A DNA stretch of 64,000 nucleotides from an uncultured Gammaproteobacteria bacterium (GTDB lineage Bacteria; Pseudomonadota; Gammaproteobacteria; PS1; Pseudothioglobaceae), in assembly GCA_902513495.1 (NCBI GenBank), contig CABXNH010000002.1, positions 21,746-85,745 on the forward strand, in the 5' to 3' direction. Numbering within the stretch: position 1 is the stretch's first letter; each line of letters begins with the position of its first letter. Shown piece after piece: positions 31,212-53,252 of this stretch. The notes beneath the pieces were generated by a model, which was given only the letters and a program-made list of their open reading frames with translations, was not told where the DNA came from and ran no database searches. Both the position numbers and the translations under genes were made by a program.

Positions 31212-32063
31212 TTAGAATGCAACAGAAGCCTTAAGAGTTAGTGAACTATCAAACGTGTTATACGTTGCAGATAATGCAGCACCTGAAGTCAGGTCACGCG
31301 CAACAGCGATTGTAGTGTAAGCATCTTTCTGTGCAGTTGAGTACTTAGTAGCAGTAGTAGAAGCTGCCGCAGCACGCTCTGCAGTGTGAGTTACAACTAC
31401 AGTGTTACCAGTAACACCAAATGTAGCAGATACAGACTTATCACTTCCAACAGTTACTGCAGTTCCAGCAACAGTTGTACCAATAGTCCACTCAGTAGCA
31501 CCAGCATCATTAGTCAAGCTAACGTCCATACCAGCAATGCTTGCAGAACCTACAGTCTTGTCAGCACCATCTTGGATAGTGTGTGCTAATGTAACACCTG
31601 ACCATGTACCTGAAACAGTTACATCACCAGAGTCATCTAGGCCGATAGTAGCGTCACCAACTGGAGCATCTAAGCTTACAGTTACACTTCTGTTGTCACC
31701 ACTGTCTGCTATAAGACCACCAGCAGTTACTGTAGTAGCTGCATCATTTTCATCATACATATCAGCAGAAATAGTTACTGGACCAATAGTAGTAGCCAAT
31801 ACTGCAGAAGTAACACTTACATCGTTATTGTTCACAGTAGTTGAAGCTGAACCATCAGTACCGCCATCAATGTCCATAGACGTTGTATAAGTAGTTGCGC
31901 CTGCCGTACCAGTAATGGTTAGGTCAGCATCGTACGAAGTAGCAGATGCAGCAGAACCGTTATCATCATATGATACAGAAGCCGCTCCACTTAGTGCGAT
32001 AGCACCCATAGCAGAAGTAGAAGCTACAGCTGTTGTCGCGAATAGTGCGATTAGTTTTTTCAT
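31212..32063 (-). CDS. Signal-peptide-bearing porin-like outer-membrane protein (Thr/Ala/Ser/Asp-rich)
   Basis: MKKLIALFATTAVASTSAMGAIALSGAASVSYDD signal peptide; alternating short beta-like segments; C-terminal ...LTLKASVAF with terminal Phe; SD-like GGAG upstream of ATG 32063. Confidence 0.75.
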   Translation of the reverse strand: MKKLIALFATTAVASTSAMGAIALSGAASVSYDDNGSAASATSYDADLTITGTAGATTYTTSMDIDGGTDGSASTTVNNNDVSVTSAVLATTIGPVTISADMYDENDAATTVTAGGLIADSGDNRSVTVSLDAPVGDATIGLDDSGDVTVSGTWSGVTLAHTIQDGADKTVGSASIAGMDVSLTNDAGATEWTIGTTVAGTAVTVGSDKSVSATFGVTGNTVVVTHTAERAAAASTTATKYSTAQKDAYTTIAVARDLTSGAALSATYNTFDSSLTLKASVAF

Positions 32064-32373
32064 TTTATTCTCCATTTAGAATATTTAATTGTTGGTTATC
32101 CCAACACCCTTTTGCTATTCTTACAAATAACAATGCGTACATAATAATGATATTACACAGCTTTGTCAATGAAAATTTGAAAAATAAATACAAATAGTTG
32201 TATTTTTTCAACAATTTATCCAATTTAAACTATAAATCCTTTATATATAAGGTTTATTAATAGTATTTTTTTTCAATAAATAAGGTTTTTTTGCTTATAT
32301 AAGACGAATAAACAGGCAAACATTGATAGCTTAATTAAGAATAGTTGATTAATTGCAACTTTACTAAATACTT

Positions 32374-37326: not shown

Positions 37327-38265
37327 CTAATTATTATTGGAATATTTTAAAAGGTCAATAGTTTCCTTAATACCTCTTCTAATATCGCCAGAAAAAATAA
37401 ATCCCTTAGACTTAAAACGATCACACATTACTTCGTAAGAAAGTTGATTCATAATTCGATTATTGACAAATTCTATTTCTAAATTTGGAACAAACTCCTT
37501 AATTGTTTCAACAACTTGTCGAACAGTAGCATTAATAGTTAAAACATTATATATTTGACCGTCAAAAATATTATTTTTTATGATAAATGCTATCGCTCTA
37601 GATGCATCTAATAAATCTAGATATGGTCTTTTTTGATCGTATGCAGAACTCCAAACACTTATAGGTTGATTCATTACAGCCTGCCAACAAAACTTATTGA
37701 CTGCCGTATGAAAACGCATTCCTGGAGAAGCGCCAAAAATTGTTCCAAACCTGCAATGTATTGCTTTTAGACTTTTATCTTTAACAAATTCAGCAATAAG
37801 TTCTTCTTCTTTAAGCTTTGTAGTTGCATAAGGGCTCTGTGGCTGAAGCTCTGACTCAGAACAGTTTTCATCAACTTGGTTATTTTGTGTCCCGTAAACG
37901 CTTGTAGATGAAAGTGCAATTAAAGGAGCATCAGCTTTTATACATGCTTCTGCCACTTTTAGTGTTGACTGAAAATTATTTGCCTCTAGCTCTTCAGCCA
38001 TATCAATACTTCCAGCAGCATCGGTTATTGCGGCCAAATGAATTACTACATTAGCTCCAATAAAAATTGGCTTTAAATTCATTTGACTAACATCTCCCTC
38101 AATAAATTGATAATTAGCACTCGATGGGAGGTTGAATAAAGAAGGAAAACGCTGAGTCATCATATTGTCAATCATTACTATTGTAGATTCAGGAAAAGAA
38201 ATTCCTAAATCACGAATAATATAGGATCCAATATGCCCTATTGCGCCTGTAACTATAATCTTCAT
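37327..38265 (-). CDS. NAD-dependent epimerase/dehydratase (extended SDR)
   Basis: MKIIVTGAIGHIGSYIIRDL, YATTKLKEEELI. Confidence 0.88.
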   Translation of the reverse strand: MKIIVTGAIGHIGSYIIRDLGISFPESTIVMIDNMMTQRFPSLFNLPSSANYQFIEGDVSQMNLKPIFIGANVVIHLAAITDAAGSIDMAEELEANNFQSTLKVAEACIKADAPLIALSSTSVYGTQNNQVDENCSESELQPQSPYATTKLKEEELIAEFVKDKSLKAIHCRFGTIFGASPGMRFHTAVNKFCWQAVMNQPISVWSSAYDQKRPYLDLLDASRAIAFIIKNNIFDGQIYNVLTINATVRQVVETIKEFVPNLEIEFVNNRIMNQLSYEVMCDRFKSKGFIFSGDIRRGIKETIDLLKYSNNN

Positions 38266-38684
38266 TTTTTTCCCTTATTTTCTAGTTGGGAAACAAAATC
38301 TTTAAAGTATTGATAATCACTTATATAATCTTCTGCTTCATAAAGACGATCACAGATTACAGTCATAGTTGAATTATGTTCAATATATTTTTCCTCTGCC
38401 CAAATACCTGGAGGAACTAATAGACCAAAATTAGGCTTATCAAGTATGAAAACTTTTTTACTTACTGAATCATCACACGAGACCTCTACAGACCCATTAG
38501 AACATATAAGAAGCTGTGAACATAGACGATGAGCATGCTTACCTCTAATGCTTCCCTTTTCAGACATTACATTAAAAATCCTTTTTATCGAAAATGGAAT
38601 TAACTCATTTCCATGCTCAAAAACTGAAAGCTCACCATTATCTTCTTTAAAGACAGGAAATTCTATTAATTTAACAGACTTCAT
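38262..38684 (-). CDS. WxcM/FdtA-like dTDP-keto-deoxyhexose 3,4-ketoisomerase (cupin)
   Basis: GELSVFEHGNELIPFSIKRIFNVMSEKGSIRGKHAHRLCSQLLICSNGSVEV...LVPPGIWAEE. Confidence 0.85.
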   Translation of the reverse strand: MKSVKLIEFPVFKEDNGELSVFEHGNELIPFSIKRIFNVMSEKGSIRGKHAHRLCSQLLICSNGSVEVSCDDSVSKKVFILDKPNFGLLVPPGIWAEEKYIEHNSTMTVICDRLYEAEDYISDYQYFKDFVSQLENKGKK

Positions 38685-39676
38685 TTAGAATATTCCTTAC
38701 TTAAATGATTCACCAACAAATATATACCCTCCTCAATTGATGTTTTAGCCGACCAGCTTGTGAGCGATTTTAATCGTTCAGCTGAGCCTATAAAATTTCT
38801 TTTCTCAATTTCAGATATCCCACTGGGCCATGATACATTTTCAATCTTTAAATTGAAACCAGTTATTTTTTCTATTTCATTCACAATCAATCCAAATGCA
38901 CTTTTAATTGGTGTGCCTACACCACTTGAAACATTAAATAGTATTTCATCATTTTTTTTAATTTTTTCGTAATTAAGAGTACTTGCAAATAAAAATGCCT
39001 GAACAACATCGTCTATATAAATATAATCCCTTATATAATTTCCCGTACCATAAATCTTTATAGATTTATTTTCAAAACCTAATCTTGTAATTTTACTGAG
39101 AATACCTCTGTCAAGAGCTGAGCTATCATTAATGCTAGGACCATAAACATTTGCTAGTCTTAATGACACTGACTCAATTAAGTTTTCACGAGTGGCCATT
39201 TTTAGTATTTTTTCAACACTTAACTTATTTGAGTCATAGGAGGTTATTGGAATAGAGGGTTGATCTTCTGATACAGGGAATTCGTGAGTTAAGCCATAAA
39301 TTGTTGCTGTTGATGCATAAATAACTTTTGGCTTAATAGATAATTCTTTAGCAGCATTTACTAAATTTGTAATCGGAATAATCTCTACATTTAGACTATT
39401 TTCAGGATTTTTTTCAGCAGCTGCAATACTTGTATTTCCTGATAAATGGAAAATAATATCTGAATGATTGACAATTGTTAACCAAGAATCTAAATCATTT
39501 AAATCAATATTCCAGTCTTCAATATTCTCTTCAGCCTTAAGTTTTGTTCTACTAATACGAACAAGTTTTTTGACAGAATAGCCTTGTAACTCATTTACCA
39601 ATGCAGAACCAATGTATCCACTTGCACCAGTTATAGCAATAACTTTATTCTTTAACTTGCTTTGAAGTTCATTCAT
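38681..39676 (-). CDS. NAD-dependent epimerase/dehydratase (extended SDR)
   Basis: VIAITGASGYIGSALVNEL; SYDSNKLSVEKIL; YGTGNYIRDYIYIDDVVQAF. Confidence 0.88.
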   Translation of the reverse strand: MNELQSKLKNKVIAITGASGYIGSALVNELQGYSVKKLVRISRTKLKAEENIEDWNIDLNDLDSWLTIVNHSDIIFHLSGNTSIAAAEKNPENSLNVEIIPITNLVNAAKELSIKPKVIYASTATIYGLTHEFPVSEDQPSIPITSYDSNKLSVEKILKMATRENLIESVSLRLANVYGPSINDSSALDRGILSKITRLGFENKSIKIYGTGNYIRDYIYIDDVVQAFLFASTLNYEKIKKNDEILFNVSSGVGTPIKSAFGLIVNEIEKITGFNLKIENVSWPSGISEIEKRNFIGSAERLKSLTSWSAKTSIEEGIYLLVNHLSKEYSK

Positions 39677-39717: not shown

Positions 39718-40815
39718 TCAGAGATTAAAAAATCGTTTTATTCTATTTACTATTTTGTTTAAATCACTTTTTGATAATTCAGGATAGATTGGTAGCGAAA
39801 TAATTTTTTGAACAATGTTTTCAGTAACTGTCATATCTTCTGATTTTATTACTCTATCATTGTAAGCAGGTTGCATATGAACTGGCAAAGAGTAATGAAT
39901 CCCAGCAATAATTCCATCCTCTTTGAGAAAGCTTAGTAAAGAATCACGAGTTTCGACCTGAATCACAAAAAGATGAAAAACAGATTCAGCATTGCTACGA
40001 ATAGATGGCAATAAAATTGGAAGTTCTAAGAGTTTTTCATAATAAAATTCTGCTATATCTCTTCTCTTTTGATTATCTTTATCTAAATGTCTCAGCTTGA
40101 TTCGTAATATAGCTGCTTGAAGCTCATCTAACCTAGAATTTCTTCCTGGCTGCATACTGACTCTATCTTGCCATCCATATTCTCTAATCATCCGAATTTT
40201 TGAAGCTAATTCATGATTATTTGAAGTAACTAATCCAGCATCTCCAATTGCACCTAAATTTTTTGTTGGATAACAACTAAAGCAACCAATATCGCCTATA
40301 CTGCCAACCCTTTTATTATTGTATTTTGCGCCATGGGCTTGTGAAGCGTCTTCAATTAAATAGATTTTATTTGAATTACAAAAAGTTATTATTGGATCAA
40401 GGTCAGCAGCCTGTCCATAAAGATGAACAGCAATAATAGCCTTTGTTTTTTTTGTTAATAACTCTTGAAGGTGGGCTGGATTGAGTGTATAGAATTTTGA
40501 ATCTACGTCAACTAAAACAGCACTAGCGCCTGTAGCTTCAATAGCTGCAATAGTAGCTACAGCAGTATGTGAAACAGTAATAACTTCATCGCCAAAACCT
40601 ATATTTAAGGCTCTCAATGCTATCTCAATAGCATCAGTTCCATTAGCAACACCAATTGCAGATGAAGTACCTATATATTCAGCAAACTCTCTCTCTAAGT
40701 ATCTAACCTGCTCTCCTAAAACATAGGAATTACCTCGCATCACTGAAATAACAGCATCCTCAATTTCAGACTGATAACTCTTGAATTGTTCTGATGGATT
40801 TGAACAAAGTACCAT
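39718..40815 (-). CDS. DegT/DnrJ/EryC1/StrS sugar aminotransferase (FdtB-like)
   Basis: GVANGTDAIEIALRALNIGFGDEVITVSHTAVAT, LIEDASQAHGA, GCFSCYPTKNLGAIGDAGLV (PLP-Lys). Confidence 0.92.
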   Translation of the reverse strand: MVLCSNPSEQFKSYQSEIEDAVISVMRGNSYVLGEQVRYLEREFAEYIGTSSAIGVANGTDAIEIALRALNIGFGDEVITVSHTAVATIAAIEATGASAVLVDVDSKFYTLNPAHLQELLTKKTKAIIAVHLYGQAADLDPIITFCNSNKIYLIEDASQAHGAKYNNKRVGSIGDIGCFSCYPTKNLGAIGDAGLVTSNNHELASKIRMIREYGWQDRVSMQPGRNSRLDELQAAILRIKLRHLDKDNQKRRDIAEFYYEKLLELPILLPSIRSNAESVFHLFVIQVETRDSLLSFLKEDGIIAGIHYSLPVHMQPAYNDRVIKSEDMTVTENIVQKIISLPIYPELSKSDLNKIVNRIKRFFNL

Positions 40816-40816
40816 A

Positions 40817-42034
40817 TTAACTAACCTTTACATTAGGTATATAAGTTATCCAATGCCTTTGGTCTCCCATAAAGTCAATTTCTTTTTTCATAATTTCTTC
40901 AGAATGATTCCAAGCAAAAAGTAATACATAATCCGGATTGCTATCTCTAAATTGATCATATGGCAAAACCGGTATATGTGCACCGGGAGAATACTTATTT
41001 TGCTTAATTGGAGTTGTATCATAGATACATTCGACAAGATTAGGTGTTATTCCAAAATAGTTTGTTACAGTTGTACTTTTAGAAGTTGCACCATATGCTA
41101 CAACTTTCTTTCCAGCATTTTTAAGATTATTAAGAAGCTCAATTAAGTCATTTTTTATCTTATTAACACTAGCAGTAAAATCTAGGTATGCATCGTTTCT
41201 ATCCAACCCTATTTCCTTTTCTTTCTTTATTAAACTAATCACATTTTGAGAGACTTGCTTAACCCCTTTGTGAGCTATTGTATATCGCATTGATCCTCCA
41301 TGAGTGATTTGAGGTTCAACATTTACTAGTTCAAGATCATGCATATTAGCAATATGACTTATAGATAAAGCTGAAAAAAGAAAAACATGCTCATCATAAA
41401 TTTGATCAAAAGATGTTTTTTCAATAATTTCACCAAGATAAGGATCTTCAAATATAAAAACACCTTCTTCATTTAATAATGTTTTAACGCCTTCATAAAT
41501 AGAATGCATATAAGGAATATGGCACATAACATTTGCACTCAAAATTGCATCTGCTTTTTGATAATTTTTTGAAATTTTATCGGCCAATAACTTATCAAAA
41601 AACTCAGTTATTACCTCTATCCCCTTGCTTTTAGAAACTTCCGCAACATTTTTAGAGGGCTCAATGCCAAGACATGGAATTTTATCTGATACAAAATTCT
41701 GCAGCATAATTCCATCATTACTTCCTATTTCTACAACAAAAGACTTTTGATCTAGATTCTGAAGCGAAGTCACTGAATTAGAAAATTTGCGAAAATGACT
41801 AATCATATAGTTTGATGTTGATGAGAAAAAAGCATAATTATCATGAAACATTTTTTCTCTATCAGGCTGTTCAAGCAATTGAACCATATTACAGTTTTCA
41901 CAAAAACCAACCTTCATAGAAAATAAATATTCATTCTCTAACTCTTTTTTCGTAGAAAATGCATTTGCTATTGGCATATTTCCAAAATCAACGAAAGGAT
42001 TAAAACTATTGTCGCATATTAGACATTTATTCAC
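40817..42034 (-). CDS. Sugar C-methyltransferase-like class I SAM methyltransferase (TylC3/NovU-type architecture)
   Basis: N-terminal Cys-rich zinc module CLICDNSF...CENCNMVQL; VVEIGSNDGIML; C-terminal VVAYGATSKSTTVTNYFGI...YDTTPIKQNKYSPGAHIPV. Confidence 0.85.
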   Translation of the reverse strand: MNKCLICDNSFNPFVDFGNMPIANAFSTKKELENEYLFSMKVGFCENCNMVQLLEQPDREKMFHDNYAFFSSTSNYMISHFRKFSNSVTSLQNLDQKSFVVEIGSNDGIMLQNFVSDKIPCLGIEPSKNVAEVSKSKGIEVITEFFDKLLADKISKNYQKADAILSANVMCHIPYMHSIYEGVKTLLNEEGVFIFEDPYLGEIIEKTSFDQIYDEHVFLFSALSISHIANMHDLELVNVEPQITHGGSMRYTIAHKGVKQVSQNVISLIKKEKEIGLDRNDAYLDFTASVNKIKNDLIELLNNLKNAGKKVVAYGATSKSTTVTNYFGITPNLVECIYDTTPIKQNKYSPGAHIPVLPYDQFRDSNPDYVLLFAWNHSEEIMKKEIDFMGDQRHWITYIPNVKVS

Positions 42035-43198: not shown

Positions 43199-44089
43199 TT
43201 AGTTTGAATTTGAAGAATTAGACAAAGCCTGGATGCATTTATTTAATGAATCTTTCCAATAAATAATGTCCAAATCAAAGGAGTTTCTTATTTTGTTATT
43301 ATCTAATAACACATGTTTTGGTCTTAATGCTTCTTGTGGGTAATCTTTTGAATCAATTGAGGTGATAATGCACTTTGTGTCCGAAATATTAGCTATTTCT
43401 TTTGCAAAATCATACCAACTGCATTCACCATCATTTGAATAATGGAACACCTCTGAAATTTGACTAGCTTCAGAAAATTTCTTACTTTCAATAATTTTTA
43501 ATATTGCAATTGCTATGTCATTAGCGTAGGTTGGAGAGCCTATCTGATTAGAGACAATATTTAATTTTTCTTTTGTTTTCATTAACTTTAGTATTGTATC
43601 TAGAAAGTTATTTCCATATTTTGAATAAAGCCAACTTGTTCTAATAATTAGTGCATCAAATACCATTATTGATAATATTGCATTCTCACCATCTAACTTT
43701 GTTTTGCCATATACATTTATTGGAGAGGTATCATCCGTTTCATTGTATGGTTTGAGCTTCAAACCATCAAAAACATAGTCAGTTGAAATTTGTATCAGCT
43801 TAATACAATTGTCTCTAGCTATTTCTGCAATATTATTAACTGACAAATGATTGACCAAATTTGCCTGTTCCTTTTCCACTTCAGATTTATCTACTGCAGT
43901 ATAAGCAGCACAATTAATAATTACATCAAATTGATTTTTCTCAATAAAACTGCGAACATTTTGAAAATCTGTCAGATCTAATTGCTCTCTAGTGGCAAAA
44001 ACAAAACGATTATCCGATTTATTATGATCAACTAGATAATTAAATGTTTTTCCTAGCTGGCCATTTGCTCCTGTAACTAATATGAACAT
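43199..44089 (-). CDS. rfbD: dTDP-4-dehydrorhamnose reductase
   Basis: ILVTGANGQLGKTFNYL, ISTDYVFDG, YGKTKLDGE; in rfbBACD order. Confidence 0.95.
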   Translation of the reverse strand: MFILVTGANGQLGKTFNYLVDHNKSDNRFVFATREQLDLTDFQNVRSFIEKNQFDVIINCAAYTAVDKSEVEKEQANLVNHLSVNNIAEIARDNCIKLIQISTDYVFDGLKLKPYNETDDTSPINVYGKTKLDGENAILSIMVFDALIIRTSWLYSKYGNNFLDTILKLMKTKEKLNIVSNQIGSPTYANDIAIAILKIIESKKFSEASQISEVFHYSNDGECSWYDFAKEIANISDTKCIITSIDSKDYPQEALRPKHVLLDNNKIRNSFDLDIIYWKDSLNKCIQALSNSSNSN

Positions 44090-44101
44090 GACATAATTAC
44101 A

Positions 44102-44656
44102 TTAAAATAATTTATCACTTTTTGCCAACGTAGGATAATTTTTATCGACCTCAGAGAGGATTATTTCATTATCTGAAAAACCCCAATCAATATTAATATC
44201 GGAATCATTGTAAGCAATGCCTTCATTGTGTTTTGCTGAGTAATATGCATCAACTTTATATAAAATAGTTGCACTTTTACTCAAAACAACAAATCCATGA
44301 GCAAATCCACGAGGTATGAAGAGCTGATTTTTATTTTCTTCATTTAACTCTATGGCAACATACTTGCTAAATGTTTTGCTATTTCTTCTTATATCTACTG
44401 CCACATCTAACACGCTTCCACTAATAACTCGAACCAACTTGCCCTGAGTGTGCGGAGGTGACTGAAAGTGCAAACCACGCAGAACCCTTTTTGAGATAGA
44501 TTTTGATTCATTATCCTGCACAAAATCAACTTTATATCCAATAGCCTCATCAAACAATGATTGCCTAAAGGTTTCTATAAAGTACCCTCTATTATCTTTA
44601 TGAATTATCGGTTCAATTAATAATACTTCTGGGATAGATTGAGGTATGAATTTCAT
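44102..44656 (-). CDS. rfbC: dTDP-4-dehydrorhamnose 3,5-epimerase
   Basis: KDNRGYFIETFRQSLFDE, RGLHFQSPPHTQGKLVRVISGSVLDVAVDIR, IPRGFAHGFVVLS. Confidence 0.97.
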   Translation of the reverse strand: MKFIPQSIPEVLLIEPIIHKDNRGYFIETFRQSLFDEAIGYKVDFVQDNESKSISKRVLRGLHFQSPPHTQGKLVRVISGSVLDVAVDIRRNSKTFSKYVAIELNEENKNQLFIPRGFAHGFVVLSKSATILYKVDAYYSAKHNEGIAYNDSDINIDWGFSDNEIILSEVDKNYPTLAKSDKLF

Positions 44657-45523
44657 TTATAGACTCAATAAGTATTGACCATATTGATTATTCTTCATCG
44701 CTTTGGCAATCGCTAATAATTGCTTTCTTGAAATATACCCTTTTTCGAATGCAATCTCTTCAATACAAGCCAATTTTAATCCCTGTCTTCTTTCAATAGT
44801 TTCAACAAACTTTGAAGCCTCTAGTAAATCCTCATGAGATCCAGTATCAAGCCAGGCATATCCTCTTCCAAGCAACTTAACTCTTAAACGATTCTCTTTC
44901 AAATACATATCATTAACAGAAGTAATTTCAAGCTCTCCTCTTTCGGAAGGGGTTATTGAGTGAGCTTTTTTTACTATATCATTGGGATAAAAATAAAGAC
45001 CAGTTACTGCAAAGTTGCTTTTTGGATTCAATGGTTTTTCATCAATGCTAATTGCCTTATTAGATTTATCAAATTCAACAACGCCATATTTCGAGGGCTC
45101 TTTAACATGATATCCAAACACAGTTGCCAAATTGTTTGAAGTCACATTAAAAACTGCTTCAATCAACAAATCAGTAAGTCCTTGACCATAAAATATATTG
45201 TCACCCAAAATTAAAGCGACACTATCTTCTCCTATGAAATCCTCTCCTATAATAAAAGCCTGAGCTAAGCCGTCAGGAGATGGCTGTTCTTTGTAATCTA
45301 ATTTAATTCCAATATTTGAACCATCGCCAAGTAAATTTTCGAATTTTGACAAATCTTGAGGAGTAGAAATAATTAATATTTCTTCTATACCAGCTAACAT
45401 CAATACTGACAATGGGTAGTAGATCATTGGCTTATCATAAATTGGAAGTAACTGCTTGGAAACACTCCTAGTTAATGGATAAAGCCTAGTTCCAGAGCCT
45501 CCCGCAAGAATAATTCCTTTCAT
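44657..45523 (-). CDS. rfbA: Glucose-1-phosphate thymidylyltransferase
   Basis: [39 protein letters not shown]. Confidence 0.98.
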
Positions 45524-45524
45524 T

Positions 45525-46610
45525 TTAATTTACTCCTAAACGCTCAAGTCTGTAACTTCCATCTTGAATATTTTCTGACCAAGATAAGTTGGTTAAGTAC
45601 CATTCAACAGTTTTCCTTATACCAGAAATAAAATCCTCTTTAGGCTCCCAGTTCAAGTCAAATTTGATTTTTGAAGCATCAATTGCGTATCTTACATCAT
45701 GTCCTGGTCTATCTTTAACATAAGTAATTAAGTCTTTGAAAGAAGCAAGACCATTCAATCGATCTGGCATTAATTCATCTAATATATTACAAATTGTATT
45801 AACAACTTCAATATTCTGTATTTCATTATTCCCGCCTATATTATATGTTTCCCCAATACTACCATTTTCTAACACAGTCATTAGTGCACGAACATGATCA
45901 TTTACATAGAGCCAATCTCTAATTTGTCTACCGTCGCCATAAACTGGAAGACTTTTCCCATCAAGGGCAGTAAGAATCATATGAGGAATAAGCTTTTCTG
46001 GAAATTGATATGGTCCATAATTATTTGAGCAATTGGTTATAAGAACTGGAAAATTATATGTCCTATTCCAAGCTCTAACTAGATGGTCTGAACTCGCTTT
46101 AGAGGCAGAATAAGGAGAGCTCGGATTATAAGGAGTATCTTCAGTAAATAAATCATCAGTTTGATCAAGATCGCCATATACTTCATCTGTTGAAACATGA
46201 AGGAATCTAAAGTTTTCTTTTTTTATTCCCTTAAGTGATTGCCAATAATGCTTAGCCTGCTCAAGAAGAGTAAAAGTTCCAACTATATTTGTTTGAACAA
46301 AATCTGCTGGTCCATCTATCGATCTGTCCACATGTGACTCAGCTGCAAGGTGGATTAATGCATCAGGTTTATTTTTGAGTAATAAAGTTTTTATAGAATT
46401 TTCATCACAAATATCTATTTTTTCAAAAAAATATTTTTGATTTAATTCAATAGATTTTAAGGACTCTAAATTGCCAGAATAGGTCAATTTATCAATGTTT
46501 ATTACCTTATATTCTGTATGAGAGATAATATGTCTGATTAATGCAGAGCCAATAAAGCCAGCACCGCCAGTAACTAAAACTGTTTTTTTACTTTTCATTT
46601 TTTCTACCAA
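45525..46610 (-). CDS. rfbB: dTDP-glucose 4,6-dehydratase
   Basis: [49 protein letters not shown]; start could also be 46598. Confidence 0.97.
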
Positions 46611-46639: not shown

Positions 46640-49555
46640 TTACTTAAAATGTTCAAAATAAATATGATCAGGCTCTAATCCCTTATGATGTCTTTCATTC
46701 ATCGTTGTATAAGCAGATTCAAGATTTTTTACAAACAGCTTAGTATTATAAAGTGGCGATGTAGAGAGGTTACTTGCTAACTTATCTTTAATCGCTTTGA
46801 GTTTATCTGGTTGTGAAGCAAGTTCAATAGCAAGTGCTTCATACTCTTCTGGAGTATTGGTAATGAGTTCAGGAAGATTGATTGAAGTAAGGATGCTGGC
46901 ACCCATTCTTGCTTGGTAGGATTGTCCTATCATAGTAAGCATAGGAAGCCCCATTTTAAGGGCGTCACTCGCTGTTGTTCCCGCGTTATAAGGATGTGTG
47001 TCTAGGAATAGGTCAGCCACTCGATAGCGGGCTAGGTATTCTGGCCTCTCATAGCGGTCAGCAAAAATGAGTCGGTTTGGATTAATATGTCTTAGCGCTA
47101 TCTCTTTAGTAAGATTCACTTTAGAGGATTCATTACTTGCAAATACAACCAGTACACTATCTTCAACTGCACTTAAGATTCGAGCCCAACTATCAAAAAT
47201 CGTAGGAGTAAATTTATAAGTATTGTTAAAACAACAAAACACAAAGCCTTCTTCAGGAAGGCCCACGTCTTTGCGAGTCAGAGTAATCTCCGGTGGTAAG
47301 TCCTTAGAGTCATTCACTTGAAAGCTAGGTAGATAAACAATCTTCTCAACATAATACTTTTGATTCTCTTTAGGGATCATCACTGGATCAGCAATAAGAT
47401 AGTCATAATAATCAGCTCCCATCGTCCCCAAATAACCGATATAACTCAGCTGAATCGGGGCAGCTGACATGGCAAAGACATCTGTTCTTGCATCTTGAGT
47501 AAAACCACCTAAATCAACTGCAATGTCAATTTCCAATGACCTAACAAATAAAGCCATTTCTTTATGAGACATCGACTGCACATTATGAAACTGGTCTACC
47601 CCTGCCTTAATACGCAGATTAAGTGCGTCTTTGGTATCAGAACCAAAAGAGAAGGCATGAACCTCAAAATAATTCCGATCATGAAGCTCGTAAAGCTCAG
47701 CAGTTAGGTATGCGAGAGGATGCTCCCTAAAATCGGCAGAGAAATAACCAATACGGATCTTCGGATGCTTGGGATATCGAACGATTGTGGGTAAAATATT
47801 GCTTTTAGGATGATCACCAGTCATTCTAAGCTTCTGAGCCTTTATTTGAAGAGCGGGATCATCAACCAATCCCATTAAGTTGAACGGCTCAATTATTTTT
47901 TCATTGTTAACAATTCTTTGTTTAGCATCAGTAAGTAACTCTTCTAAATCATCCCAATTGCATGAGTTCATTTTAGTGTTTAGTATATTACCTAATACAT
48001 TTTCCAGACTATTTTCAATATCAAAAGCTCTTTCATAACTGCTTAGCGCTTCATTGAGATAATTGAGATCTTTATATGCATTACCAAGATTGTTATAAGC
48101 TATTGCAAAATCGGGATTAATTTCAACTGCTTTTTCAAAACTTTTGACTGCCTGATTAAGAAGGCTTGTATCCATGGTTAAAACATTACCAAGATTATTA
48201 TATGCCTCCGCAAAGTTTGGATCTATTTCTATGGCTTTTTTATAGCTTTGTACAGACTCGTTAATCCTATTGAGACCTTTAAAAACATTGCCAAGATTAT
48301 TGTAAGCCTCTGCAAAATTTGGATCTATTTCTATGGCTTTATTGAAAGTATTTATTGAATCATCTAGACGCCCAAGGTCTGCCAGAATATTGCCATAATT
48401 ATTATGCACCTCAGCAAAGTTATCAGAAATTTTTATTGATTTTTTGAAACTTTCAACTGCATCATCTAATCGGCCAAGATCCTTTAAAAGATTACCAAGA
48501 TTGTTATAAGCTATTGCAAAATCGGGGTTAATTTCAACTGCTTTTTCAAAACTTTTAATGGCTTCTTCCGATCGCTCAGAATCTCTGAAGGCATTCCCTA
48601 GATTATTGTGAGCCTCAGCATAGTCTGGATTAATAGATATAGCCATCTTATAGCTTTTAACTGCCTCATCAAGCTCTTCAAGCTCACCAAATACATTTCC
48701 AATGTAATTATGCGAGTCAGCATTATCTGGATTATGTATTAAAGCATTTCTATAAGATTTAAGCGCATTATCAAGTTGTCCAAGCTCTTTATATGCATTA
48801 CCTAAATTATTATGAAGGGCTGGATAATCTGGATTTAAATCGAGAGCCTTTAAATATGATTCAATGGCCTCATCTAGCTGTCCAAGCTCAGTGTAAGCAT
48901 TACCTAAATTATTATATACTTCTGAAAAATTTGGATTTTTATCTAAAGCCTTTAAATATGATTCAACAGCATCATCTAATTGACCAAGCTCATTATAGGC
49001 CACTCCAAGAAAATTATGAGCTTCTGCGAGATTTGGATGGATGCTCACTGCCCTCTCAAGATGGTTAATCATAGACTCAATTTCACCTAATTCATAAAAG
49101 GTTAGACCAAGACCATAATTGGCTTCAAAAAAGTTCGACTTGATAATAAGGGCTTTTTCATAACTCCTGACTGCTTGATTATATTCACCACTTTCTCTAT
49201 AAATATTCCCAAGATTGTTATAAGCCTCAGCATATTCTGGATCAATTTCCAGAGACTTTTTATAACTTTTTATTGATTCCTTATGTTTATTTTGATGATG
49301 ATACGCATCGCCAAGGTTATAGTGGGCCTTAGCATATTCAGGATCAATAGATATCGCTTTCTTATAGCTCTTGACTGCTAAAGCTAATTGCCCTAAACCA
49401 GCATAACACGCTCCCATTATGTTACAAAGCAATGAATCGTCTGGAAAAATTTTTGTTAGATCTTTTATTGTATCGATAGCCTCTTGATATTGACCATTCG
49501 AATATAGAGCTATAATGGAGCTTGTTTGGGTGACGAATAAATCTTTTTTACTCAT
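46640..49555 (-). CDS. TPR-repeat protein with C-terminal O-GlcNAc transferase (GT41/SPINDLY-like) domain
   Basis: About 14 34-aa TPR units (..DPNFAEAYNNLGNVFKGLNRINESVQSYKKAIEI..), then IGYFSADFREHPLAYLTAELYELHDR, VDLGGFTQDARTDVFAMSAAPIQLSYIGYLGTMGADYYDYLIADPVMIP, FCCFNNTYKFTP, DTHPYNAGTTASDALKMGLPMLT. Confidence 0.93.
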   Translation of the reverse strand: MSKKDLFVTQTSSIIALYSNGQYQEAIDTIKDLTKIFPDDSLLCNIMGACYAGLGQLALAVKSYKKAISIDPEYAKAHYNLGDAYHHQNKHKESIKSYKKSLEIDPEYAEAYNNLGNIYRESGEYNQAVRSYEKALIIKSNFFEANYGLGLTFYELGEIESMINHLERAVSIHPNLAEAHNFLGVAYNELGQLDDAVESYLKALDKNPNFSEVYNNLGNAYTELGQLDEAIESYLKALDLNPDYPALHNNLGNAYKELGQLDNALKSYRNALIHNPDNADSHNYIGNVFGELEELDEAVKSYKMAISINPDYAEAHNNLGNAFRDSERSEEAIKSFEKAVEINPDFAIAYNNLGNLLKDLGRLDDAVESFKKSIKISDNFAEVHNNYGNILADLGRLDDSINTFNKAIEIDPNFAEAYNNLGNVFKGLNRINESVQSYKKAIEIDPNFAEAYNNLGNVLTMDTSLLNQAVKSFEKAVEINPDFAIAYNNLGNAYKDLNYLNEALSSYERAFDIENSLENVLGNILNTKMNSCNWDDLEELLTDAKQRIVNNEKIIEPFNLMGLVDDPALQIKAQKLRMTGDHPKSNILPTIVRYPKHPKIRIGYFSADFREHPLAYLTAELYELHDRNYFEVHAFSFGSDTKDALNLRIKAGVDQFHNVQSMSHKEMALFVRSLEIDIAVDLGGFTQDARTDVFAMSAAPIQLSYIGYLGTMGADYYDYLIADPVMIPKENQKYYVEKIVYLPSFQVNDSKDLPPEITLTRKDVGLPEEGFVFCCFNNTYKFTPTIFDSWARILSAVEDSVLVVFASNESSKVNLTKEIALRHINPNRLIFADRYERPEYLARYRVADLFLDTHPYNAGTTASDALKMGLPMLTMIGQSYQARMGASILTSINLPELITNTPEEYEALAIELASQPDKLKAIKDKLASNLSTSPLYNTKLFVKNLESAYTTMNERHHKGLEPDHIYFEHFK
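47990..49500 (-). repeat. Coding tandem repeat array: TPR units of about 102 bp
   Basis: Recurrent YNNLGN...NP(D/N)FAEAYNNLGN periodicity; near-identical DNA segments at 48081-48147 and 48492-48558, and at about 48185-48242 and 48287-48344. Confidence 0.9.
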
Positions 49556-51219
49556 TGCTTATTAGTGACTAAACCCTTGATCAAAGGCTGCAAATAATCT
49601 TCATATTGTTTCCAAGCTTCTGAGCTACCCTGATACATTTTTTTTCTAACTTGCATTGAACTAGTTGTTTTGACTGCTGAATTATTTTTATGAAAATTAA
49701 GGCAGTTTTCATCCCACTCTAAATCACAGTAATCTAATAATTTTCGAGTTTCTTTTTCTTGATTAGTTGTTAGATTCTCATAATAAAGATCATAGATTAT
49801 ACCTGGAAAAAGCTTATTCCAAAAATCCATAAGATCCTTATAAAGATGATAATAAGCAGCTATATCTTTCTGGTCAAATGAATAAGCATTTCCCTTGAAC
49901 GTATACTTATATATAGACCAACAGGTGGCCATCGGATCTCTGTTCATGTGAATTATTTTAGCTTCCGGAAATGCAGATAAAATAAAACCGATATATCGAA
50001 AATTTATAGGCATTTTATCAACAATAATATTTTTCTCAATTCCTGCCATAGGGAGGGAACTTATATAATCATTTCGTATAGACAGTATTTCATTTTCAGA
50101 AAAGCCTTTATTGTTCAAAGCGTCATAATCTCTGAGAAGCGGCATAACTATTTTGTTTAAATTATTCAATTCGCCGACTCCATGCACATTTTTATGACTA
50201 TCTAGAATTTGATGAACTAAGGAGGTCCCGGAGCGCGGCATACCTAAAATGAAAATGGGTTTTACTTTTAGCGCATTATAAGCTGATGGTTTAACAATAT
50301 GAGAATTAGATTGGAATACATCCTTAATTCTTGAAAACAAGTCTTGGTCTTTTTTAATTGAATACCCCAACTCTTTTTTGTGCAAACTATTTGCATCATT
50401 TAAAAATTTAAATTGCTCTTTGTTATTTTTAAGGTCCTCAAAGGCTTTTGATAGAGCAAAGCTAAACCCAATACGATCGTTTATTGGCAAATCATCTCTG
50501 TTAAGAATTGATTTCATTTCATCAATTTGAGGGTCATTTTTTGTAAACTTTTTAATACGGCTTAAGTGGTAGTAGGCATACCCCCAATCAGGCTTAAGAG
50601 CGAGAGCCTTTTCAATATTTTTTAGAAAACCTTTTTCATCACCAAGATCTTTAAAAACTAGAGCGAGATTAAAATAAGCTTTGTCATAATTTGGATTATA
50701 GTGAATAGCTTTTTCAAAATTTATAATAGCATCTTTTTCATTTCCTAAATTATTGTATGCTTTTGCTAAATTATTGTACGCTTCTGCAAAATCATGTTGA
50801 TGTGCTATAGCCCATTCAAAACTTCCAATTCCAGCCTCATACTGGTCAAGTGCAATATATACATTCCCTAGATTATTATGTGCATCAGGAAAATTTGGAG
50901 TAATAGCAATTGCTTTTTTATAACTTTCTATTGATTCATTTTTTTGATCTAAATCTTGGAAAACAACTCCAAGATTAAAATGAGCTTCAGCATAGTTTGG
51001 TCTTAGTGATACTGCAATGCCAAACATCTTGGCAGCACCCTCCAATTGGCCTATCTCCTTATAGCAAGCGCCAATAAGATTAAATAATAAAGGCTGATTA
51101 GGGAATTTTTCATTTAGGACTTTTATTTGACCTATGGCCTCCATTATCTGACCATTTGAGAATAGTTCATAAGCTGATTCAAGCTCTTTTTTTGGAAGCG
51201 AGACCTGTTTATTTGTCAT
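49552..51219 (-). CDS. TPR-repeat sulfotransferase family protein
   Basis: N-terminal TPRs, then KPIFILGMPRSGTSLVHQILDSHKNVHGVGELNNL (PAPS P-loop-like), MNRDPMATCWSIYKYTF. Confidence 0.9.
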   Translation of the reverse strand: MTNKQVSLPKKELESAYELFSNGQIMEAIGQIKVLNEKFPNQPLLFNLIGACYKEIGQLEGAAKMFGIAVSLRPNYAEAHFNLGVVFQDLDQKNESIESYKKAIAITPNFPDAHNNLGNVYIALDQYEAGIGSFEWAIAHQHDFAEAYNNLAKAYNNLGNEKDAIINFEKAIHYNPNYDKAYFNLALVFKDLGDEKGFLKNIEKALALKPDWGYAYYHLSRIKKFTKNDPQIDEMKSILNRDDLPINDRIGFSFALSKAFEDLKNNKEQFKFLNDANSLHKKELGYSIKKDQDLFSRIKDVFQSNSHIVKPSAYNALKVKPIFILGMPRSGTSLVHQILDSHKNVHGVGELNNLNKIVMPLLRDYDALNNKGFSENEILSIRNDYISSLPMAGIEKNIIVDKMPINFRYIGFILSAFPEAKIIHMNRDPMATCWSIYKYTFKGNAYSFDQKDIAAYYHLYKDLMDFWNKLFPGIIYDLYYENLTTNQEKETRKLLDYCDLEWDENCLNFHKNNSAVKTTSSMQVRKKMYQGSSEAWKQYEDYLQPLIKGLVTNKQ

Positions 51220-51443
51220 TTATTATTTTTATTATTTTTTTGAATACAATTCTCATTTTAGACTTGCAGATTAAAAAATTAAATAAATATTATATATATC
51301 ATAAGAAGCTTTCTAGACAAAATAGGAGAATGGGAATTTATATTTTAAAAAACTTGATTAAACAACAAAATTAAACAAATTTAACTAACGATTAAGTATA
51401 CTTTGAAATTCATTAAACTTATATTAAATACAGACCTAATATA

Positions 51444-53252
51444 ATGTCAATTAAAATCGATCGACTGTTATTACGAGCCAAAAAACTCAGAAAAAAAAGT
51501 CAATTCAATGAAGCTAAAGAAATATATTTAAGTGTTTTAGAATCATTCCCGTCAAACAAAGAAGCAAAAAATGGCTTACTTGAAATTAATCAAAATAAAG
51601 AAATAAAACCAAATGTAAATCAATTAGAAGTTTTGGTAAATTTACATAATACTGGTCAATTTCAAAAAGCATTATCTAGCATTGATGAACTTTTAAAAAC
51701 TTATAATAATGACCCTTTTTTGTTCAATATTAAAGGATCTTGTTTGTGTGAAATTGGAGATTTAAATGCTTCAATTTTAAACCTTGAGATGGCAATAAAA
51801 CTCAAATCAGATTATGCTGAAGCTCATTTTAATCTTGGTGTTGCTCATCAAAGGCTAGAACAGTTCGATATGGCAATTGAAAACTATCAAAAAGCATTAG
51901 ATATTCAACATGCGCAACCTAAGGCCCATCTCAACTTAGGAACTATTTATTTTCAAAGAAATCAGATCAGTTCTGCAATTAAAAGTTTTGAATGGGCAAG
52001 TGCTTATAGTCCAAATTATCCAGAAGCAGCTAGAAACTTAGGGTCGGCTTTTCAAAAAATAAATAAATTTGAAAAAGCTAAAAAACAATTTGAAAAAGCT
52101 ATATCTATTAACCCAGAATATGATCAACCATATGAAGATTTAGGCATATTATGTGAAATCATCAATCTTCCAAAAGAAGCTTTAAGTTATTTTGAAAAAG
52201 CTTTAGAGATTAACCCTAACTTAACTAACTCCTACCGTAATTTAAGTAAATATAAAAAATTTGAAGCTAAAGATCCTCTTATTAGTCAAATGGAGTCACT
52301 TTATTCTAAAAGTGATTTGCCACGTTTACATAAAATTAACCTTTGCTTTGCTTTAGCTAAAGTATATGAAGATTTAAACGATCCGGAAAATTTTTTTAAA
52401 TTCTTAAATAAAGGTAACGCGTTACGAAAACAAGAGTTGGGATATGATTTTGTCATGAGTGAAAATTTTTATTCAATTATTGTTAATTTGTTCTCATCAA
52501 CTCAGCCTGTAATTAATACACCTTCAGATAAACATTCAAGTATAAGACCTATTTTTATTGTTGGAATGCCCAGATCCGGAACAAGCTTAATAGAACAAAT
52601 AATCTCAAGCCATCATGCTGTTCATGGGGCAGGCGAACTCCTTACTCTAAGAAATATTATTGATCCTATCTTAGCAAAATCTTTAAAGAAAGATAAATTT
52701 AAAATGTCTAAAAAAGATCTTTTATTAGTTCGTGAACAATATCTAGATTATCTTTCTAATCTTAATGTTTCAGAGAAAATAATTACTGACAAGATGCCAG
52801 TTAATTTTAGACTGATTGGCTTCATTCTCTCAGCATTACCTGAAGCTAAGATTGTTCACTTAAAAAGAGATGCTAGAGCTATCTGCTGGTCAAATTATAG
52901 ACATTACTTTAGCGATGGAAATGGCTTCTCTTTTAATCAGGAGGATTTAGTCAAATTTTATACTCGCTATTCTGAAATGATGGAATTTTGGCACAAATTA
53001 TTTCCAAACAAAATATATGATATGAGTTACGAAGAATTAACAAATAATCAAAAAAAAGAAACTCAAAAACTTTTAAATTACTGTGATTTAGATTGGGATG
53101 AAGACTGTTTAAATTTCCATAAAAACACTCGAGGAGTTGTCACTGCAAGCTCCTCACAAGTTAGAAAAAAGATGTATCAAGGAAGCTCTGATGCTTGGAA
53201 AAAATATGAGCCATACATTGAACCCCTTATCAAAGGGCTAAAAGGATATTAA
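51444..53252 (+). CDS. TPR-repeat sulfotransferase family protein (paralog of 49552-51219)
   Basis: N-terminal TPRs, then RPIFIVGMPRSGTSLIEQIISSHHAVHGAGELLTL, KRDARAICWSNYRHYF. Confidence 0.9.
   Translation: MSIKIDRLLLRAKKLRKKSQFNEAKEIYLSVLESFPSNKEAKNGLLEINQNKEIKPNVNQLEVLVNLHNTGQFQKALSSIDELLKTYNNDPFLFNIKGSCLCEIGDLNASILNLEMAIKLKSDYAEAHFNLGVAHQRLEQFDMAIENYQKALDIQHAQPKAHLNLGTIYFQRNQISSAIKSFEWASAYSPNYPEAARNLGSAFQKINKFEKAKKQFEKAISINPEYDQPYEDLGILCEIINLPKEALSYFEKALEINPNLTNSYRNLSKYKKFEAKDPLISQMESLYSKSDLPRLHKINLCFALAKVYEDLNDPENFFKFLNKGNALRKQELGYDFVMSENFYSIIVNLFSSTQPVINTPSDKHSSIRPIFIVGMPRSGTSLIEQIISSHHAVHGAGELLTLRNIIDPILAKSLKKDKFKMSKKDLLLVREQYLDYLSNLNVSEKIITDKMPVNFRLIGFILSALPEAKIVHLKRDARAICWSNYRHYFSDGNGFSFNQEDLVKFYTRYSEMMEFWHKLFPNKIYDMSYEELTNNQKKETQKLLNYCDLDWDEDCLNFHKNTRGVVTASSSQVRKKMYQGSSDAWKKYEPYIEPLIKGLKGY

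What the first reader, a model, noticed from the sequence alone, without database searches (positions are those of the whole stretch)
46640..53252. TPR/O-GlcNAc-transferase-like protein with two TPR-sulfotransferases: candidate glycosylation-sulfation locus
A GT41-type protein with conserved catalytic-region motifs and about 14 TPRs overlaps by 4 nt (ATGA-type coupling) the gene of a TPR-sulfotransferase. A second TPR-sulfotransferase lies head-to-head next to it. All three share the N-terminal TPR start (S/NNGQ..EAI..I..L...FP...LLxNxxGACY/SC), suggesting a common docking or substrate-recognition module. The set lies directly upstream of rfbBACD. Hypothesis: TPR arrays recruit shared protein substrates that are glycosylated and then sulfated, or a surface glycan is built and sulfated.
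Basis: partly seen in the sequence, partly recalled or inferred. Interest (0 to 1): 0.65.

Follow-up and report, generated by a model that had tools for sequence, protein, structure and literature searches.

The report
Shared-TPR glycosyltransferase and sulfotransferase island
In a marine sulfur-oxidising bacterium (Candidatus Thioglobus), a sugar-attaching enzyme and two sulfate-attaching enzymes carry the same distinctive N-terminal docking repeat and sit in one gene island with the genes for the sugar, which suggests, but does not prove, a shared system that adds sugar and sulfate to the cell's own proteins.

Summary
In detail: a TPR-GT41 protein (971 aa), a TPR-sulfotransferase overlapping it by 4 nt and a divergent second one, upstream of rmlBACD, in a Ca. 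Thioglobus genome. (1) The common N-terminal cap is real: cross-class profiles rank it first in 41 of 41 complete caps, at least 40 units above internal repeats; GT41s of other taxa lack it, and it has moved between GT41 and sulfotransferases (AU p=8e-9). (2) All 10 GT41 genomes of the genus (10/29) carry TPR-sulfotransferases (15/29; p=2e-4), mostly in one island; outside the genus the pairing is nearly absent. (3) Sulfotransferase genomes usually carry APS kinase and none has PAPS reductase, so PAPS is probably for sulfation. (4) The nearest solved sulfotransferases are protein-tyrosine enzymes, with active-site residues kept. (5) Y856 argues against UDP-GlcNAc; the operon suggests a dTDP-6-deoxysugar. 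(6) In closed genomes GT41 paralogs share a 97-99% identical donor lobe but divergent TPRs. The cap also heads methyltransferases and 2OG-oxygenase-like proteins. Best reading, at moderate confidence: TPR-guided protein glycosylation and sulfation. Client proteins and order of steps are unknown.

The parts
46640..49555 (-). TPR-GT41 glycosyltransferase, 971 aa
   Evidence: profile matches OGT (6e-99), XcOGT and SPINDLY in PDB
46643..47887 (-). GT41 catalytic part (aa 557-971): H612, Y780, K781, Y840, Y856, G859
49307..49546 (-). N-terminal cap module of GT41
   Evidence: score 90.6, best elsewhere in the TPR region 21.5
49552..49555 (-). 4-nt ATGA overlap between ST1 stop and GT41 start
49552..51219 (-). 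TPR-sulfotransferase ST1, 555 aa
   Evidence: AlphaFold model pLDDT 89.7
49708..50259 (-). Sulfotransfer_3 domain of ST1 (aa 321-504) with R329, E350, K402, R427, S435
50965..51204 (-). N-terminal cap module of ST1
   Evidence: score 88.8, best elsewhere -3.8
51220..51443 (.). 224-bp A+T-rich divergent intergenic region between ST1 and ST2
   Evidence: promoters not tested
51444..53252 (+). TPR-sulfotransferase ST2, 602 aa
51603..51842 (+). cap module of ST2 (after an extension of about 48 aa)
   Evidence: score 61.9 with the GT41 profile, next -7.5
52548..53102 (+). Sulfotransfer_3 domain of ST2 (aa 369-553) with R377, E398, K450, R475, S483
45525..46610 (-). rmlB (rfbB), dTDP-glucose 4,6-dehydratase; the start may be the ATG 12 nt inside the listed TTG
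   Evidence: named from its sequence; conserved beside GT41 in relatives; start codons seen
44657..45523 (-). rmlA (rfbA), glucose-1-phosphate thymidylyltransferase
   Evidence: named from its sequence
44102..44656 (-). rmlC (rfbC)
   Evidence: named from its sequence
43199..44089 (-). rmlD (rfbD)
   Evidence: named from its sequence
40817..42034 (-). sugar C-methyltransferase (Methyltransf_13/14), possible tailoring gene
   Evidence: part of an insertion between pgeF and rluD not seen in the relatives read
39718..40815 (-). DegT/DnrJ/EryC1 aminotransferase, possible tailoring gene
38681..39676 (-). NAD-dependent epimerase/dehydratase, possible tailoring gene
37327..38265 (-). NAD-dependent epimerase/dehydratase type, possible tailoring gene
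   Evidence: by sequence only

Best explanation
An accessory island for TPR-guided modification of the cell's own proteins. The TPR arrays choose client proteins, probably exported or surface proteins held in the cytoplasm before secretion. GT41 transfers a 6-deoxyhexose from the dTDP-sugar made by rmlBACD (with possible tailoring by the C-methyltransferase, aminotransferase and epimerases at 37.3-42.0 kb). The TPST-like sulfotransferases transfer sulfate from PAPS (Sat plus APS kinase) to the same or neighbouring clients, on Tyr or on the glycan. The common N-terminal cap either docks all these enzymes on one partner or joins them to each other. Shown by computation: gene identities, the cap, its exchange between enzyme classes, co-occurrence, kept active-site residues, donor-lobe homogenisation. 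Inferred: donor sugar, protein clients, cap function, order of steps.
For: Cap shared across enzyme classes and distinct from internal TPRs; absent from GT41s of other taxa; exchanged between GT41 and ST (1067 nt and 241 nt at 100% identity in G019; at least 3 changes on supported branches without those copies). GT41 occurs only in ST genomes (10/10, p=2e-4), within 20 kb in 7 of 10. rmlB and rmlA beside GT41 in 5 genomes with varying third genes. APS kinase beside ST in 7 genomes, CysQ-like genes in 2; ST and APS kinase co-occur (p=0.003); no PAPS reductase in 15 ST genomes; Sat common. ST profile nearest to TPST1/2 (2e-14) with R, E, K and 3'-phosphate residues kept (catalytic residues in PMC5562738). 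Y856 instead of OGT C917; an aromatic residue there excludes GlcNAc in SPINDLY (PMC9715652). Donor lobes 97-99% identical in DNA between paralogs of closed genomes, against 34-48% protein identity in TPRs. Precedent: FlmG binds flagellins through its TPR domain and glycosylates them in the cytoplasm (PMC7591256).
Against: No client protein is identified, and no autotransporter, flagellin or pilin was seen in the island. rmlBACD may serve lipopolysaccharide; rmlA also occurs in 3 of 19 genomes without GT41. The pairing is confined to one genus, so the genomes are not independent. The fit of the donor-pocket class to rmlA rests on few genomes: G025 has the Y/G pocket without rmlA, and Y/G is common outside without nearby rml genes. 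The 100% copies are in a draft genome. Sulfotransfer_3 enzymes can also act on glycans or small molecules.
Confidence: 0.5

Rival explanations
1. Surface polysaccharide island: rmlBACD feed lipopolysaccharide or capsule, the sulfotransferases sulfate that glycan, and the GT41 is a neighbour without functional coupling.
For: rml genes and deoxysugar-tailoring genes are typical of polysaccharide loci; the locus is a variable hot spot between rluD and the LLM-GST genes; another glycan-type island in the same genome (contig C21) carries two short Sulfotransfer_3-like proteins of 321 and 430 aa.
Against: No polysaccharide glycosyltransferase, flippase or polymerase was seen among the genes at 36.5-53.3 kb; the only glycosyltransferase in the operon is the TPR-GT41 type; the ST profile is nearest to protein-tyrosine sulfotransferases; the cap is shared by GT41 and ST.
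Confidence: 0.22
2. No functional coupling: the cap is a lineage-specific first TPR spread by recombination between adjacent repeat genes, and the enzymes have separate clients.
For: Gene conversion between paralogs is frequent here; adjacent repeat genes recombine easily; the cap also occurs on methyltransferases, 2OG-oxygenase-like and TPR-only proteins far from the island.
Against: The cap keeps its N-terminal place and invariant residues in several enzyme classes while the TPR arrays diverge, as expected under functional constraint; GT41 was never found without ST in the genus.
Confidence: 0.2
3. The sulfotransferases act on a small molecule or lipid and the TPRs only oligomerise the enzymes.
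For: Weaker sequence matches to CurM and cytosolic SULTs.
Against: The TPST match is far better (2e-14 against 1e-6), the TPST active-site positions that could be aligned are kept, and the TPR domain is long.
Confidence: 0.07

Closest known systems
FlmG of Caulobacter crescentus (TPR + GT-B cytoplasmic flagellin O-glycosyltransferase)
   Same: N-terminal TPR domain that binds the client, C-terminal GT-B glycosyltransferase, dedicated sugar-nucleotide genes (PMC7591256)
   Different: FlmG depends on pseudaminic acid and modifies flagellins; here the linked donor genes are rmlBACD, clients are unknown, and sulfotransferases share the cap
SPINDLY / OGT (GT41)
   Same: TPR array plus GT41 catalytic region; K842/K665 equivalent K781 kept; Y856 as in SPY Y744
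   Different: OGT uses UDP-GlcNAc and SPY GDP-fucose; SPY H495 is F685 here; OGT H901 and H920 are Y840 and G859
Protein-tyrosine sulfotransferases TPST1/2
   Same: closest solved sequence relatives; R, E and K catalytic residues and 3'-phosphate R/S aligned
   Different: TPSTs are Golgi membrane enzymes without a TPR domain; the ST1 model has six TPRs before the sulfotransferase domain
RaxST / raxX-raxSTAB of Xanthomonas
   Same: bacterial protein-tyrosine sulfation is established there (PMC6637879, PMC4216712, abstracts)
   Different: no GT41 or TPR partner is mentioned in the abstracts read; no peptide precursor or secretion genes in this island
'Tetratricopeptide repeat-containing sulfotransferase family protein' (annotation term)
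   Same: TPR plus sulfotransferase, 28-31% identity over most of ST1, on plasmids of many bacteria
   Different: no paper using that name was found; only the Thioglobus ones were shown here to share a cap with GT41

Membership tests
GT41 (TPR glycosyltransferases) | GT41 catalytic region over the curated cut-off | tested here: met
   234.6 bits against cut-off 25
GT41 (TPR glycosyltransferases) | essential lysine (OGT K842 / SPY K665) and diphosphate-binding Thr | tested here: met
   K781, T860, T861; K invariant in 14 sequences
O-GlcNAc transferase proper | small residue (C917) that leaves room for GlcNAc | tested here: not met
   Y856; Y or F in all 14
O-GlcNAc transferase proper | UDP-GlcNAc transfer to protein | not testable with these tools
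   needs an assay
SPINDLY protein O-fucosyltransferase | Y744-type aromatic residue | tested here: met
   Y856
SPINDLY protein O-fucosyltransferase | H495, dead when mutated (PMC9715652) | tested here: not met
   F685, variable in relatives
FlmG-type flagellin glycosyltransferase | dependence on pseudaminic acid; flagellin as client | not tested
   linked donor genes are rmlBACD; flagellins were not searched
Protein-tyrosine sulfotransferase (TPST) | closest solved relatives are TPSTs | tested here: met
   TPST1/2 at 2e-14 to 2e-11; next CurM 1e-6
Protein-tyrosine sulfotransferase (TPST) | R78, E99, K158 catalytic residues and 3'-phosphate R/S | tested here: met
   R329, E350, K402, R427, S435 invariant in 19 sequences; catalytic set from PMC5562738, 3'-phosphate pair from general knowledge
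Protein-tyrosine sulfotransferase (TPST) | catalytic S285 | tested here: inconclusive
   beyond the aligned part
Protein-tyrosine sulfotransferase (TPST) | sulfates peptide Tyr | not testable with these tools
   needs an assay

The most novel reading that the evidence does not exclude
A bacterial modular protein-modification system in which one interchangeable TPR cap brings different enzymes (GT41 deoxyhexosyltransferase, TPST-like sulfotransferases, 2OG-oxygenases, methyltransferases) to common clients, so that bacterial proteins are both glycosylated with a dTDP-derived 6-deoxysugar and sulfated in the cytoplasm, with TPR arrays diversifying and donor lobes kept alike by gene conversion.
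Probability: 0.27. Interest if true: 0.85.

Novelty: new variant of a known kind. Interest (0 to 1): 0.62.

Why it matters
If true, it would be a bacterial system that joins protein glycosylation and sulfation through a shared docking repeat, and it would explain what PAPS is for in a sulfur-oxidising lineage without PAPS reductase. It would give GT41 enzymes a dTDP-sugar donor, which the papers read here do not mention.

Tried and rejected
Generic TPR similarity as the cause of the shared start: rejected by cross-class profiles. A general GT41+ST partnership across bacteria: rejected, 1 of about 77 outside loci. A one-residue loop deletion as a donor-specific mark: rejected, common outside without nearby rml genes. 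The pocket pair OGT H901/H920 as a donor code: two coupled classes exist (H/H 49, Y/G 33 outside), but the link to rmlA in the genus is too small and has an exception (G025); kept as a hint. Autotransporters as clients: present in only 9 of 29 genomes, next to cap enzymes in G000 and G019 and about 5 kb away in G027; suggestive only. Unknown C-terminal domain of the 470-aa cap proteins: no Pfam, PHROG or PDB match and a poor model. Fold search of ST1 is dominated by TPR superhelices; the best sulfotransferase is tick TPST, 8w5z, E 4e-8; the viral library added nothing. Literature searches for TPR-sulfotransferases gave nothing.

Full report
What is there. The window is part of a 1.22-Mb, 70% complete genome. 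GT41, ST1 and ST2 are at the stated coordinates; ST1 and GT41 overlap by ATGA, and GT41 is followed by rmlB, A, C and D with gaps of 29, 1, 0 and 12 nt. In this genome four further genes lie between pgeF and rluD: two epimerase-type genes, a DegT aminotransferase and a sugar C-methyltransferase; the relatives read lack them there.

The shared N-terminal module. BLAST already prefers the N-to-N register. A profile of the sulfotransferase caps, scanned over 12 GT41 and 7 proteins without either catalytic domain, gives the N-terminal cap as best hit in 19 of 19 (51 to 126 units, at most 29 elsewhere). The reverse test, GT41 caps on sulfotransferases, gives 19 of 19 (41 to 124 units, at most 25 elsewhere). 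The smallest gap is about 43 units. ST2 of the window and two further complete proteins pass as well; a fourth, the C53 GT41, is cut off at its contig end and cannot be judged. The cap is the first TPR of the ST1 model (helices 10-21, 25-38, then 43-55; pLDDT 89.7). In 77 loci with GT41s of other taxa no protein scores above 11.3. A wider search finds the cap at E below 1e-17 in only 4 other genomes of 299 in the phylum, all of one family; the matching proteins are TPR-sulfotransferases.

The cap crosses enzyme classes. In G019 a sulfotransferase and a GT41 are identical over 1067 nt from the start codon, and another pair over 241 nt. With those recent copies left out, GT41 caps do not form one clade (AU p 8e-9; 7 changes, at least 3 forced by well-supported branches). 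Because 72 columns are few, the forced count is the safer number. The cap also heads SAM-methyltransferases, 2OG-Fe(II) oxygenase-like proteins (weak Pfam matches), TPR-only proteins and a family with an unknown C-terminal domain.

Co-occurrence. Of 83 genomes in 11 genera of the family, GT41 and TPR-ST were found only in the window's genus. There 10 of 29 have GT41, 15 have TPR-ST, and all 10 are among the 15 (Fisher p 2e-4; the genomes are related, so this overstates independence, and several are incomplete). In 7 of 10 they lie within 20 kb. The order GT41(-), ST1(-), ST2(+) is the same in the window, G007 and G012. The site is a variable island between rluD and the LLM-GST or mtkAB-type genes; in G023 it is decayed. 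Outside the genus, only 1 of about 77 GT41 loci has a TPR-ST within the fetched flanks of up to 10 kb.

Donors. True APS kinase hits occur in 15 of 29 genomes, 12 of them with ST (p 0.003), and a stand-alone APS kinase lies beside ST in seven genomes. Strong PAPS-reductase-family hits occur in 5 genomes, none with ST (p 0.017). In ST genomes PAPS therefore has no evident assimilatory use. Sat is present in 21 of 29; in the window's own incomplete genome it was not found. rmlA and rmlB lie within a few kb of GT41 in five genomes, with rmlCD in two and other dTDP-sugar-type genes in three.

Active sites. GT41 keeps H612 (OGT H498), K781 (K842) and the Thr pair, but has Y856 where OGT has C917. 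The SPINDLY structure paper argues that an aromatic residue there leaves no room for GlcNAc and suits a 6-deoxyhexose (PMC9715652). With rmlBACD next door, dTDP-L-rhamnose or a related dTDP-6-deoxysugar is the best guess; this is inference. The sulfotransferase profile is nearest to TPST1/2, and R329, E350 and K402 align with the catalytic R, E and K named in PMC5562738; the catalytic Ser could not be aligned. This favours protein sulfation but does not exclude glycan sulfation.

Donor lobe against acceptor parts. In the closed genomes G007 and G008, GT41 paralogs are 97-99% identical in DNA over the C-terminal lobe, 53-78% over the N-terminal lobe, and 34-48% identical in protein over the TPRs. 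The window pair shows the same trend (87% against 47% protein). G012 is an exception: its two copies differ in both lobes and in pocket residues. The reading 'one donor, several clients' fits, but gene conversion alone could give part of the pattern.

Verdict. The reading that best fits is a TPR-guided protein-modification island, at moderate confidence because no client protein is known.

Noticed in passing
L233:4287-5831, L237:4977-5798, L240:779-1684, L244:4677-5729, L245:4266-5783: Sulfotransferases of the same family are encoded in viral contigs among what look like phage structural genes, in L237 overlapping the preceding gene by 4 nt.
   Followed up: partly
L222:4851-6260, L229:5851-7206, L083:11686-13299: Cap-TPR proteins with a conserved C-terminal domain of about 270 aa that matches nothing in Pfam, PHROGs or PDB.
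   Followed up: partly
L227:3-3638, L223:3-5745: A cap-TPR methyltransferase (window's own genome, contig C40) and a cap-TPR 2OG-oxygenase-like protein (G019) lie next to autotransporter-type surface proteins, possible clients.
   Followed up: partly
L100:9341-21352, L094:9548-21358, L113:7799-16411, L090:8885-15421: Very long open frames (2,178 to 4,004 aa) with three to five GT41 matches in one protein, in Methylococcales and Chlorobiaceae genomes.
   Followed up: no
L010:1-3789: The window's genome has a second GT41 on contig C53 followed directly by a TPR gene with the same cap; both run off the contig ends.
   Followed up: partly
L069:11333-14128: One of three GT41 paralogs in G007 has lost three residues just after the conserved His of the HP motif and has D to G nearby; it may be inactive.
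   Followed up: no
GT41s of L090-L167 and Thioglobus: Two coupled donor-pocket classes at the positions of OGT H901/H920: H/H (49) and Y/G (33) outside the genus; both occur in Thioglobus.
   Followed up: partly
window 31212-32075 (-): Conserved Ser/Thr-rich, apparently secreted protein near the island in several relatives; a possible abundant surface protein.
   Followed up: no
L080, L081 (G023): The island is broken into fragments with stops and frameshifts in G023, which has no rmlA hit.
   Followed up: no
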